64,000 nt of DNA, from positions 157,202-221,201 of the forward strand of contig WQWM01000001.1 of assembly GCA_009785335.1 (NCBI GenBank), read 5' to 3'. The stretch is from Oscillospiraceae bacterium (GTDB lineage: Bacteria > Bacillota > Clostridia > Oscillospirales > Acutalibacteraceae). The position numbers were made by a program, and so were the translations under genes. Of this stretch, positions 1 through 17,272 are shown piece by piece. The stretch's first letter is position 1. Each line of letters starts with the position of its first letter. Under the pieces are notes generated by a model. That model searched no databases. It saw nothing but the letters and a program-made list of their open reading frames with translations, and was not told the origin of the DNA.

Positions 1-539
1 CTGCGGGTTTCGCCATCCCAGTCAAACGCCGCTAGAGCCAATTCTTTCTCGCCCAATTGCCAATGCCGCTTGGGAAAGAAACGCTGTGCGTGTTCCGCGT
101 TGCAAATATCCATAAAATGCTTGCCGCCGGGCTTAAGCGCACGTGCAATCACGTCAAAAATCTTCAAGTTTTCTTCATCTGTTTCCAAATAGCCAATCGC
201 ACCATCTGCTAGGTTGAGCACAACATCAAATTCGCTTTCAAACTCCACGGCGCGGATATCTGCACAGATAAACGTTGCGTTCAACCCATGTTTCAGGGCT
301 GATTCGCTTGCGTCATCCACCAACTCTTGTGTGATATCCACGCCCACAACGCAAAAGCCTCGGCGTGCAAACGCAAGCGCGTGGCGTCCATAACCACAAG
401 CCAAGTCGAGAATCCGCTCGCCGCCTTGCAGCTGCAACGCTTGGATGATAAATTCCACCTGATTTTCGGTGTCTTCCGTCCACGTTTGATGTTTCATGTC
501 AAGCGACCAGCCGGTTTTATACCAACATTTATCTTGCAT
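1..539 (-). CDS. class I SAM-dependent methyltransferase (truncated by window edge)
   Basis: Reverse-strand translation MQDKCWYKTGWSLDMKHQTWTEDTENQVEFIIQALQLQGGERILDLACGYGRHALAFARRGFCVVGVDIT...; motif I LDLACGYGRHA. Start overlaps the gpmI stop by 11 bp. Confidence 0.85.
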   Translation of the reverse strand, partial: MQDKCWYKTGWSLDMKHQTWTEDTENQVEFIIQALQLQGGERILDLACGYGRHALAFARRGFCVVGVDITQELVDDASESALKHGLNATFICADIRAVEFESEFDVVLNLADGAIGYLETDEENLKIFDVIARALKPGGKHFMDICNAEHAQRFFPKRHWQLGEKELALAAFDWDGETR

Positions 540-2043
540 GAATCAGGCTCTCCCCATCCATCGCGGCTGGCTGCGCAATGCCCATGATGCCAAGCATCGT
601 CGGCGCAATGTCACACAACCTGCCGCCTGTGCGCAATGTGCAATCGCGCCCAGCTACCAAGAAAGGCACTTCATTCGTTGTGTGCGCGGTAAAGGGCGAG
701 CCATCGGGCTCTGCCATTTGGTCAGCGTTGCCGTGGTCGGCGGTCAACAGCATAATGCCGTTTTTCGCAGCCAGAGCATCCCACACACGGCCAACGCAAG
801 CATCCACCGCTTCGGTGGCGGCAACGGCGGCAGCGAAATCACCTGTGTGCCCCACCATGTCGCAGTTGGCAAAGTTCACCACAATCACATCGTATTTATC
901 CTGCGCGATGAGCTGTTCGAGTTTTTCCGTCACAACATACGCGCTCATCTCCGGCTGCATATCATATGTGGGCACGTCCGGCGAGTCAATCAGCACGCGA
1001 TCCTCACCGGGATACACCGTCTCCGTGCCGCCATTGAGGAAGAACGTCACGTGTGCGTACTTGGTATACTCCGCGATGCGCAGCTGCGTCAGCCCCTGCT
1101 CAGCAATCACCTGCCCCAGCGGGTAATCAAGCGATTGCGGCGCATAAGCCACTTGCACGTTGGGCATGGTTGCATCATATTGCGTCATGCACACGAAGGT
1201 TAAGTCAAGCATGTTTTCACGCGCAAAGCCATTGAAATCAGGGTCAACAAAGGCGCGGGTGAGTTGCCTAGCACGGTCTGGACGGAAGTTAAAAAATACC
1301 ACGCTATCGCCGTCAACGATAGGCTTGGCATCGTTGGCCACGCCGGGCAGCACGAACTCGTCGGTCACGCCAGCGTCGTAGTTGGCCTGCACATATTCTC
1401 GCCCACAGGTGAATTGCTCGCCTGTGCCATGCACCATGGCATCATAGATTTTCTGCACACGGTCGAACTTGCGCTCACGGTCCATGCCATAATATCGCCC
1501 TGCAACGGTCGCGATTTTGCCACCGAGCTCCTGTGTTTTCTGCCAAAGTTCGCCTAAAAAGTCAATACCCGAAGTTGGCGGCACATCGCGGCCGTCTAGC
1601 AGTGCATGCACGTAAACTTCCGTCAAGCCTTGTTGTTTGGCAAGCTCAAGCAACGCATACAAATGCGTGTTGTGGCTATGCACACCGCCGTCGCTAACGA
1701 GGCCAATCAAGTGCAGGGCAGTGTTGTTTTGCTTGGCTTTGTTGATTGCATCAAGCAGCACAGCGTTGGTGAAGAAGTCACCGTCGTCAATCGCCTTGCT
1801 GATGCGCGTGAGTTCTTGATACACCACACGCCCAGCACCGATGTTTGTGTGGCCAACTTCGCTGTTGCCCATTTGACCCTCGGGCAGACCAACAGCCATG
1901 CCGCTGGCTTTGATGGTAGTGTGTGGGTATTTGGCGAACAGCTCGTCCAGCCGAGGGGTTTTCGCAGTCGTGATTGCATTCGCGGACGTGGCATCGGCGA
2001 TGCCGTAGCCGTCCATAATGCACAGGCAGATGGGTTGTTTCAT
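529..2043 (-). CDS. gpmI: 2,3-bisphosphoglycerate-independent phosphoglycerate mutase
   Basis: ORF 529..2139; start placed at MKQPICLCIMDGYGIAD after GGAGGA. Motifs MGNSEVGHTNIGAGRVVYQ, LLDGRDVPP, LLTADHGNADQM. Confidence 0.95.
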   Translation of the reverse strand: MKQPICLCIMDGYGIADATSANAITTAKTPRLDELFAKYPHTTIKASGMAVGLPEGQMGNSEVGHTNIGAGRVVYQELTRISKAIDDGDFFTNAVLLDAINKAKQNNTALHLIGLVSDGGVHSHNTHLYALLELAKQQGLTEVYVHALLDGRDVPPTSGIDFLGELWQKTQELGGKIATVAGRYYGMDRERKFDRVQKIYDAMVHGTGEQFTCGREYVQANYDAGVTDEFVLPGVANDAKPIVDGDSVVFFNFRPDRARQLTRAFVDPDFNGFARENMLDLTFVCMTQYDATMPNVQVAYAPQSLDYPLGQVIAEQGLTQLRIAEYTKYAHVTFFLNGGTETVYPGEDRVLIDSPDVPTYDMQPEMSAYVVTEKLEQLIAQDKYDVIVVNFANCDMVGHTGDFAAAVAATEAVDACVGRVWDALAAKNGIMLLTADHGNADQMAEPDGSPFTAHTTNEVPFLVAGRDCTLRTGGRLCDIAPTMLGIMGIAQPAAMDGESLIHAR

Positions 2044-2078
2044 AATATCCTCCGATGTTTTATTACAGAATTCACCCC

Positions 2079-2107
2079 TTGACAACGCCCTATTATTATG
2101 GTATAAT
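2079..2107 (+). promoter_or_regulatory. consensus sigma-A promoter for a short rightward RNA
   Basis: TTGACA (2079-2084), 17-nt spacer, TATAAT (2102-2107). Confidence 0.75.
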
Positions 2108-2112
2108 AGAGG

Positions 2113-2215
2113 TGTCAAGGGGATTGACGCTGCCGACAAGGTAGCCCCTCGTGATTTTACAATCCCATAAAGACTAACCGCTGCCTTGGCTACTGGAGGC
2201 GGTTAGTCTTTTTTA
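2113..2215 (+). ncRNA. candidate antisense/antitoxin RNA (~100 nt)
   Basis: Starts just downstream of the perfect promoter, has no convincing ORF and ends at a strong hairpin plus U-run (2169-2216). Confidence 0.5.
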
Positions 2216-2216
2216 T
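2169..2216. terminator. intrinsic terminator shared by convergent transcripts
   Basis: AAAGACTAACCGC ... GCGGTTAGTCTTTTTTA; 13-bp stem followed by T-run on the + strand. Confidence 0.8.
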
Positions 2217-2277
2217 TGCGTTTGTCTTCTTGGGTCATCAAAAACAAAATAATTGCCATGATAACTAAGTATTCCAT
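2203..2277 (-). CDS. 24-aa hydrophobic peptide with charged C-terminus; candidate type I toxin
   Basis: MEYLVIMAIILFLMTQEDKRNKKD*, preceded by AAGGGGGTGAG Shine-Dalgarno; stop codon lies in the terminator hairpin. Confidence 0.55.
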   Translation of the reverse strand: MEYLVIMAIILFLMTQEDKRNKKD

Positions 2278-2387
2278 ACGCTCACCCCCTTTCGTTGACC
2301 GAAATCAACGTCCGGAGGAACTAACCACGCCACAGCGCGCCTGCGGCGGGCAGGTCGCTTCGCTGTGTTCTATTACAGGCTCATAAA

Positions 2388-2416
2388 ATTATAGCACAAG
2401 ATTGCGTGGGTGTCAA
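2388..2416 (-). promoter_or_regulatory. consensus sigma-A promoter for the small-peptide mRNA
   Basis: Minus strand TTGACA (2411-2416), 17-nt spacer, TATAAT (2388-2393). Confidence 0.75.
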
Positions 2417-13066: not shown

Positions 13067-13909
13067 ATGCGATTATTTGATTTGCACTGCGACACACTAA
13101 CCACAAAAATGGGGCACATCTCACTTGACCACGGCAAGCTATTCAAGCAATGGGCACAGCTGTGGGCGGTCTTCGTGCCCGATACCCTGCAAGGCCAAGC
13201 CGCTGCGGATTATTTCGACCGCATCGCTGCGTCTTACCACACACAGCACAGCGAAATTTCACGCGTTTGCCAGCCTATCCTGGCCCTAGAAAACGGCAAC
13301 GCCCTAGCAGGTGATTTGCAGCGCCTTGACCACATGCATGCGCTGGGCGTGCGCACCATCACCCTCACCTGGAATGGCGAAAACGAGCTTGCCTATGGTT
13401 GCCGCACGGGTTCGTCACAAGGGCTAAAGACCTTTGGCAAGCAGGCCGCGCAGCGCATGGTTGAGCTGGGCATCCACCCCGATGTGTCGCATCTGAACCC
13501 TGCCGGCTTCTGGGATGTCGCAGCCCTCGATAAGCCCATATTGGCCACGCACAGCACCTGTGCAACATTGGCACCCAACTTCGCCTGGCGCAATCTCAGC
13601 GACGACCAGCTGCGAGCTATCTTCGCAAGCGGCGGCCTCATAGGACTTTGTCTGTGCCAAGATTTCCTCGGCGGCGCGGGTGATGCACAAGCTGTGGCGC
13701 AGCATTTGGCGCACATGTTATCGCTGGGCGGCGAAGATTGCGTAGCACTGGGCAGCGATTTCGACGGCTGCACCGTGCACGAAAGCTTGGCAGGGCTGGA
13801 TAAACTGCCGCAGCTGCATGATGACCTGATCAGGCTAGGTTTTGATGAACATGTTCTGCCTAAATTTTTCTGGGAGAACGCTGAGAAATTCTTTATGAGC
13901 CCTGAATAG
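13067..13909 (+). CDS. membrane dipeptidase (peptidase M19/renal dipeptidase family)
   Basis: MRLFDLHCDTLT, LTWNGENELAYG, DVSHLNPAGFWDVA, LGSDFDG. Confidence 0.92.
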   Translation: MRLFDLHCDTLTTKMGHISLDHGKLFKQWAQLWAVFVPDTLQGQAAADYFDRIAASYHTQHSEISRVCQPILALENGNALAGDLQRLDHMHALGVRTITLTWNGENELAYGCRTGSSQGLKTFGKQAAQRMVELGIHPDVSHLNPAGFWDVAALDKPILATHSTCATLAPNFAWRNLSDDQLRAIFASGGLIGLCLCQDFLGGAGDAQAVAQHLAHMLSLGGEDCVALGSDFDGCTVHESLAGLDKLPQLHDDLIRLGFDEHVLPKFFWENAEKFFMSPE

Positions 13910-13951
13910 AACACAGCGAAGCGACGTGCTCCCCGCAGGGGCGACGCGACG

Positions 13952-17032: not shown

Positions 17033-17272
17033 AGTGATTACTCCTCAAAAAAGCAGCGAAGCACTTCACAGTGCCCCACCGCGGGGTGGATGTGCGGTGA
17101 AACGGGCCTCTTGCACGTGCTCAAATAGAACACAGCGAAGCGACTTTTGCGCGCCTTAGCGTGCACAAAGTAGAGCCCCACCGCAGGTGGTTTTTCGCTA
17201 GGCAAGGCTTGAGCAAGGGAAGTGTACAAAGGTACACGACCGAAGCGAAAACGCAGCATAGCGGAAAAAGAA

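What the first reader, a model, noticed from the sequence alone, without database searches (positions are those of the whole stretch)
2079..2416. Compact par/Fst-like type I toxin-antitoxin candidate
Seen: two convergent consensus promoters with 17-bp spacers (TTGACA-TATAAT on + at 2079-2107 and on - at 2388-2416) drive transcripts meeting at one hairpin (2169-2216). The leftward RNA encodes a 24-aa hydrophobic peptide with a charged tail (MEYLVIMAIILFLMTQEDKRNKKD) whose stop lies in the hairpin. Its leader has a hairpin (CGTTGA/TCAACG, 2293-2310), and CCUCC (from 2314-2318) could pair with the GGGGG of the SD (2285-2289), sequestering the RBS. A 7-nt ACTAACC direct repeat (2173-2179 and 2320-2326) gives a second antisense contact. 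Knowledge: convergent RNAs with a shared terminator, leader occlusion of the RBS and short direct repeats are hallmarks of the Enterococcus pAD1 par (Fst) system. The peptide matches no toxin I can name.
Basis: partly seen in the sequence, partly recalled or inferred. Interest (0 to 1): 0.88.

Follow-up and report, generated by a model that had tools for sequence, protein, structure and literature searches.

The report
Multicopy hydrophobic-peptide toxin–antisense RNA family
A gut bacterium carries about 25 copies of a tiny gene for a membrane-type peptide, each paired with an antisense RNA that should keep it silent; the pairing design resembles the Bacillus BsrG system rather than the Enterococcus Fst system first proposed, and the toxins are new.

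Summary
The sequence observation is correct. The locus is one of at least 25 intact-looking copies in this 2.2-Mb Oscillospiraceae-type genome (19 with MEYL peptides, 6 with a second peptide class). Related loci occur in another species of the genus in similar style, in several families of the order, and in one genome outside the order. The peptide is under purifying selection (pN/pS 0.28). It matches no Pfam, NCBIfam or PADLOC family. 'Type I toxin-antitoxin' is well supported by anatomy; toxicity is untested. 'par/Fst-like' is not supported. The 2169-2216 hairpin is mainly the antitoxin's terminator, not a shared one. The toxin RNA evidently continues into the antisense region: its leader pairs with its own 3' UTR in 45 of 50 copies, and wobble pairs show this pairing is selected on the toxin strand (127 G·U against 15 A·C). 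The plan is that of BsrG/SR4, and Rfam's BsrG model matches four relatives full length, below its cutoff. Predicted mechanism: the 3' UTR captures the leader's anti-Shine-Dalgarno and opens the ribosome site; the antitoxin masks the 3' UTR and the site closes. The window's own copy is atypical: a repeat inserted in its leader appears to have broken this switch.

The parts
2388..2416 (-). toxin promoter, TTGACA-17-TATAAT
   Evidence: -35 and -10 conserved upstream of nearly all 50 copies
2278..2380 (-). toxin mRNA leader (start inferred from the promoter)
   Evidence: leader is 50-75 nt in most copies, longer here because of the inserted repeat
2331..2367 (.). REP-like palindromic repeat inserted in the leader of this copy; absent from the ortholog
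   Evidence: (over 30 similar stretches in the genome)
2285..2318 (-). Shine-Dalgarno hairpin: anti-SD CCUCC (2314-2318), stem CGUUGA/UCAACG, SD GGGGG (2285-2289)
2203..2277 (-). 24-aa hydrophobic toxin ORF MEYLVIMAIILFLMTQEDKRNKKD
2169..2216 (+). terminator hairpin of the antitoxin; its U-tract (2209-2214) is read from the toxin's Lys AAA codons
2114..2215 (+). antitoxin RNA (ends inferred), antisense to the toxin mRNA's 3' UTR and last codons
2079..2107 (+). antitoxin promoter, TTGACA-17-TATAAT
2123..2153 (-). toxin 3' UTR segment complementary to the leader in relatives (includes CGAGGGGCUAC, the anti-anti-SD)
   Evidence: in the window copy only part of the pairing survives
2075..2122 (-). 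palindrome CCCCTTGACA...TGTCAAGGGG: probable toxin terminator stem in class A copies, containing the antitoxin -35; no U-tract in this copy

Best explanation
This is a chromosomal, multicopy type I toxin-antitoxin locus built on a BsrG/SR4-like plan. The leftward mRNA encodes a 24-aa membrane-type peptide with a Lys-rich tail. The mRNA reads through the post-stop hairpin, and in the intact relatives its 3' UTR pairs with its leader. In class A copies this pairing captures the leader's anti-SD, so the Shine-Dalgarno sequence is partly freed. The rightward antitoxin RNA (about 100 nt, ending at the hairpin) is fully complementary to that 3' UTR. By binding it, the antitoxin releases the leader, the anti-SD closes on the SD, translation stops and the duplex is open to RNase III. 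Shown by sequence: layout, conservation, purifying selection, strand-specific pairing. Inferred: transcript ends, the switch, toxicity. In the window copy a repeat insertion has replaced the 5' leader segment, so it is probably locked in the closed state.
For: 19 MEYL copies in the genome; 50 copies checked, nearly all with both promoters and a near-constant geometry. Leader:3'UTR duplex stronger than all 100 shuffles in 45/50 copies, cognate -40.5 against non-cognate -28.5 kcal/mol. Mismatches in that duplex are G·U 127 against A·C 15 on the toxin strand; 44 copies show the bias and 1 the reverse. Hairpin wobbles point to the opposite strand. Compensatory changes in the leader:3'UTR core and SD stems. 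Predicted SD exposure falls from 0.27 to 0.13 when the 3' UTR is masked (19 down, 0 up). In class A the real 3' UTR opens the SD (0.43) but shuffled (0.16) or removed (0.17) 3' UTRs do not. pN/pS 0.28. Rfam BsrG matches L060, L056, L121 (E 4e-5 to 4e-4) and weakly L099 (E 0.018), all full length. BsrG/SR4 precedent: PMC6562991.
Against: No transcript or toxicity data. The BsrG matches are below Rfam's gathering score, and the window copy itself has none. SD exposure is a thermodynamic prediction; in class B copies the SD stays mostly closed in all states (0.18 against 0.13). In 20 of 50 copies the toxin strand also has a run of 4 or more T after the hairpin, so some toxin RNA may end there. 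The window copy fails the leader:3'UTR test (z -0.8). The background wobble ratio among non-cognate pairs is itself skewed (846:270).
Confidence: 0.74

Rival explanations
1. A true par/Fst-type locus: both RNAs end at the same bidirectional terminator, and the antitoxin acts through the terminator loops and the short ACTAACC/GGTTAGT direct repeat near the leader.
For: Convergent promoters, SD-sequestering leader hairpin, ACTAACC repeat; hairpin symmetric enough to work on both strands in some copies.
Against: U-tract mostly on the antitoxin strand; hairpin wobbles favour the antitoxin strand 20:5; leader:3'UTR pairing beyond the hairpin is conserved and selected on the toxin strand; no Trp or PxxxG signature; no family-library match.
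Confidence: 0.1
2. hok- or AapA1-like: the 5'-3' closed full-length mRNA is the inert form, and 3' trimming makes it translatable.
For: Strong 5'-3' closure in nearly all copies; in class B the SD stays closed when the ends are paired.
Against: Truncating the 3' UTR makes the SD less, not more, accessible in class A (0.43 to 0.17).
Confidence: 0.1
3. Not a toxin: a repeated regulatory or leader element, for example a transcription module for the downstream gene, whose ORF is a leader peptide.
For: The window copy lies co-directionally upstream of gpmI, with no U-tract after the palindrome; several copies sit just upstream of other genes.
Against: pN/pS 0.28, nearly invariant MEYL start, hydrophobic core and Lys tail over families; dedicated antisense promoter in nearly every copy; tandem copies and unrelated neighbours.
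Confidence: 0.05

Closest known systems
bsrG/SR4 (B. subtilis SPbeta; Rfam RF01412) and the txpA/RatA, bsrE/SR5 group
   Same: Convergent genes overlapping at the 3' end over about 70-90 nt plus terminator; SD held in a short GC stem; leader paired with post-ORF sequence; antitoxin predicted to tighten the SD stem (as reported for SR4, PMC6562991); Rfam BsrG model fits L060, L056, L121 and L099 over its full length.
   Different: Peptide 20-30 aa with no detected similarity to known toxin models; chromosomal and not tied to any detected phage or plasmid; about 25 copies in one genome; in class A the toxin terminator stem contains the antitoxin -35; BsrG matches are below the gathering score.
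par/Fst (pAD1) and Fst/Ldr toxins
   Same: Convergent promoters, RBS-occluding 5' hairpin, small hydrophobic peptide with a charged tail, complementary hairpin.
   Different: Hairpin mainly the antitoxin's terminator; inverted rather than direct repeats; no Trp or PxxxG motif; toxin RNA extends past the hairpin.
C. difficile type I TAs (CD2517.1-RCd8, CD0956.2-RCd10 and others)
   Same: Convergent overlapping toxin mRNA and antisense RNA; Lys-rich tail; more than ten loci per genome; Clostridia (PMC6563280).
   Different: Those toxins are 34-53 aa and several are linked to prophages and CRISPR arrays; not compared by sequence here beyond family libraries.

Membership tests
type I toxin-antitoxin (general) | small hydrophobic peptide gene conserved as protein | tested here: met
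   19 paralogs, pN/pS 0.28
type I toxin-antitoxin (general) | antisense RNA gene with its own promoter and terminator | tested here: met
   sequence-level only
type I toxin-antitoxin (general) | peptide is toxic and the antisense RNA neutralises it | not testable with these tools
   needs expression
par/Fst | shared bidirectional terminator | tested here: not met
   some paralogs ambiguous
par/Fst | direct repeats giving the second RNA-RNA contact at the translation start | tested here: inconclusive
   ACTAACC repeat present in class A; the main repeat is inverted
par/Fst | 5' stem-loop sequestering the SD | tested here: met
par/Fst | toxin signature: Trp between TM and tail, P/D/S/TxxxG motif | tested here: not met
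   against PMC7472228; no NCBIfam or Pfam match
bsrG/SR4 | mRNA fold of RF01412 | tested here: inconclusive
   full-length matches below gathering score in L060, L056, L121, L099; none for the window copy
bsrG/SR4 | antitoxin complementary to the toxin 3' UTR | tested here: met
   inferred ends; cognate complement 72-92 nt after the stop codon
bsrG/SR4 | homologous toxin (TxpA/BsrG) | tested here: inconclusive
   no family-library match; direct sequence comparison not done
bsrG/SR4 | antitoxin binding tightens the SD stem | tested here: inconclusive
   predicted for 19 of 50 copies; not measured

The most novel reading that the evidence does not exclude
A modular RNA chassis in Oscillospirales carries at least two, probably three, interchangeable toxin classes in about 25 loci of one genome. 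Its antitoxin does not target the ribosome site but masks a 3' UTR 'anti-anti-SD' that otherwise switches translation on, with the toxin's lysine codons doubling as the antitoxin's terminator U-tract and, in class A, the antitoxin promoter lying inside the toxin's terminator stem.
Probability: 0.35. Interest if true: 0.75.

Novelty: new variant of a known kind. Interest (0 to 1): 0.62.

Why it matters
It would add a large, undescribed group of type I toxin-antitoxin loci in gut Clostridia, where few are known. Dozens of natural variants of one RNA switch make long-range 5'-3' control of toxin mRNAs testable by comparative probing. About 25 chromosomal copies in a 2.2-Mb genome also bears directly on the open question of what chromosomal type I loci are for: cognate antitoxins share 72-92 nt of complement with their mRNA, whereas non-cognate ones share a median of 9.

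Tried and rejected
Rfam at gathering threshold over the window: only a tRNA. Pfam, NCBIfam and PADLOC: nothing above cut-off. Plasmid, phage and viral collections: no relative. Genome contigs gave the sister MAG WRBQ01 (equal to handle G010 by contig coordinates) and one Erysipelotrichaceae peptide, L065, without the layout. Several weak peptide hits (for example L071, L107, L109) lack the layout and were dropped; hits inside long open frames were not pursued. MAFFT does not align the diverged 5' blocks, so RNAalifold recovered only the core helix and the SD stem; the outer helix was tested copy by copy instead. Considered a transcription-linked C-to-U bias as the cause of the G·U excess: not excluded, but the opposite bias in the hairpin speaks against it. 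No paper in the library mentions MEYL-type peptides as toxins.

Full report
OBSERVATION. The two promoters are the only perfect 12/12 sigma-70-type sites in the first 8 kb. Both predicted RNAs fold much better than dinucleotide shuffles. The 24-aa ORF ends inside the hairpin.

A MULTICOPY FAMILY. The peptide has 13 recognisable copies in the window's own genome by single-sequence search and 19 with a profile. Copies lie on many contigs; some are in tandem (C23:15392 and 15723; C23:24807, 25098 and 25467). Another species of the genus (G010, the MAG Oscillospiraceae bacterium Lab288P1bin84, WRBQ01; matched by contig coordinates) has about 12. Further members with the full layout occur in other genera of the family (G317, G365, G107, G314, G124), in other families of the order (G738, G748, G643, G436, G032) and in G828, outside the order. 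Occurrence is patchy: 21 of 398 family genomes have a match at E 0.05 or better, not all of them genuine. M-E-Y-L is nearly invariant, followed by about 10 hydrophobic residues and a Lys-rich tail. Over 16 close pairs pN/pS is 0.28.

A SECOND PEPTIDE CLASS ON THE SAME CHASSIS. A search of the own genome for TAACCGC-N(6-32)-GCGGTTA gives 20 hairpins, against 1 for the backwards control. Several belong to loci with another peptide, M-x-x-x-FLVYLLVLLVVATRYLxSSDxxxKK, with the same kind of leader, SD hairpin, post-stop hairpin and convergent antisense promoter. Six copies are in this genome, four in G010, and related ones in G002, G004, G009 and G012. C12:63709 (L131) carries a third, longer peptide with the hairpin and antisense promoter. 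Two further loci (L128, L134) look decayed, with a repeat in place of part of the toxin gene.

THE HAIRPIN IS THE ANTITOXIN'S TERMINATOR. On the antitoxin strand the stem is followed by at least four consecutive T in 38 of 50 copies; on the toxin strand in 20 of 50. The U-tract is the complement of the toxin's terminal AAA lysine codons, so coding and termination overlap. Aligning the two arms with symmetric scoring, imperfect pairs would be wobbles on the antitoxin strand 20 times and on the toxin strand 5 times.

THE TOXIN RNA CONTINUES AND FOLDS BACK. In 45 of 50 copies the leader is complementary to the region beyond the hairpin more strongly than in any of 100 shuffles (mean z -4.9; cognate -40.5 against non-cognate -28.5 kcal/mol). 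Outer helices differ completely in sequence between genera yet stay paired (printed). With symmetric alignment, imperfect positions are G·U 127 times and A·C 15 times on the toxin strand; 44 copies show the bias and 1 the reverse. This is expected if one toxin-strand RNA contains both segments. Non-cognate pairs, which share much of the homology, give 846:270 (Fisher p 1e-4). In class A copies the antitoxin promoter lies in a palindrome CCCCCTTGACA...TGTCAAGGGGG, followed in most by a short T-rich stretch such as ATTTT on the toxin strand: a likely toxin terminator with the antitoxin -35 in its stem. The window copy and its ortholog lack that U-tract.

MECHANISM. The SD is held by a leader CCUC/GGGG stem in most copies. 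In class A, the 3' UTR carries GAGG(AA), which competes for the anti-SD. Predicted SD exposure is 0.43 for the full mRNA, 0.16 with a shuffled 3' UTR and 0.17 when truncated at the hairpin (p about 5e-5). Masking the antitoxin-complementary region lowers exposure in 19 copies and raises it in none. So the antitoxin should act by covering a 3' UTR that otherwise helps open the SD. SR4 is reported to lengthen the SD stem of bsrG from 4 to 8 bp on binding the 3' end (PMC6562991), which is the nearest precedent. In class B the effect is small, and repression may rest on the SD hairpin and on duplex decay. Cognate complementarity is 72-92 nt (from the stop codon to the antitoxin start); non-cognate exact complementarity within the genome has median 9 and maximum 37 nt, so most antitoxins should be specific.

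THE WINDOW COPY IS ATYPICAL. It fails the leader:3'UTR test (z -0.8). Alignment with its ortholog shows about 37 extra nt in the leader, containing a REP-like palindrome found in over 30 places of the genome. Its predicted SD exposure is 0.17-0.20 in every state, against 0.68 (full) and 0.17 (truncated) for the ortholog. It is probably a silenced member.

KNOWN FAMILIES. No Pfam, NCBIfam or PADLOC match. Rfam's BsrG model matches L060 (35 bits), L121 (33), L056 (32) and L099 (26) over all 259 positions, on the right strand and in register, below the gathering score of 55. The Fst/Ldr toxin signature and the shared terminator are not met.

LIMITS.

Noticed in passing
window 2331-2367; also 13909-13924 and 17128-17143: REP-like palindrome (GAACACAGCGAAGCGA core) present in over 30 places of the genome; it has entered the leader of this toxin copy and parts of other copies.
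   Followed up: partly
window 529-2043 (-): gpmI-like gene starts just downstream of the toxin locus in the same direction, with no clear terminator between, so the toxin promoter may drive it; the C36 copy also lies upstream of a phosphoglycerate-mutase-like gene.
   Followed up: no
L085:1500, L080:1500, L083:1500: Repeat elements inserted into the loop of the SD hairpin, leaving the stem intact.
   Followed up: no
L128, L134: Apparently decayed toxin loci: antitoxin promoter and hairpin present, toxin start or leader replaced by the repeat.
   Followed up: no
L079 and L062, positions 1350-1705: Orthologous site in two species with toxins of different subclasses (MEYLVMLVLILYML... against MEYLVIMAILLFL...): possible cassette exchange or gene conversion.
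   Followed up: partly
L067 about 1500-1570 (-): Member with ATA in place of the ATG start but an intact leader and antisense gene.
   Followed up: no
L131 about 507 (-): Longer hydrophobic peptide (ending TILQLARSIVEYIKR) with the same TAACCGCC hairpin and a convergent TTGACA-TATAAT promoter: a further toxin class.
   Followed up: no
L149, L153 (genome G012): G012, same genus, has 11 weak matches to the second peptide class; the two read have the leader, hairpin and antisense layout: another expansion.
   Followed up: partly
L065:736-814: Erysipelotrichaceae MAG peptide MEYLVILAIILYLLDRQGPRDRDDE without the promoter-hairpin layout.
   Followed up: partly
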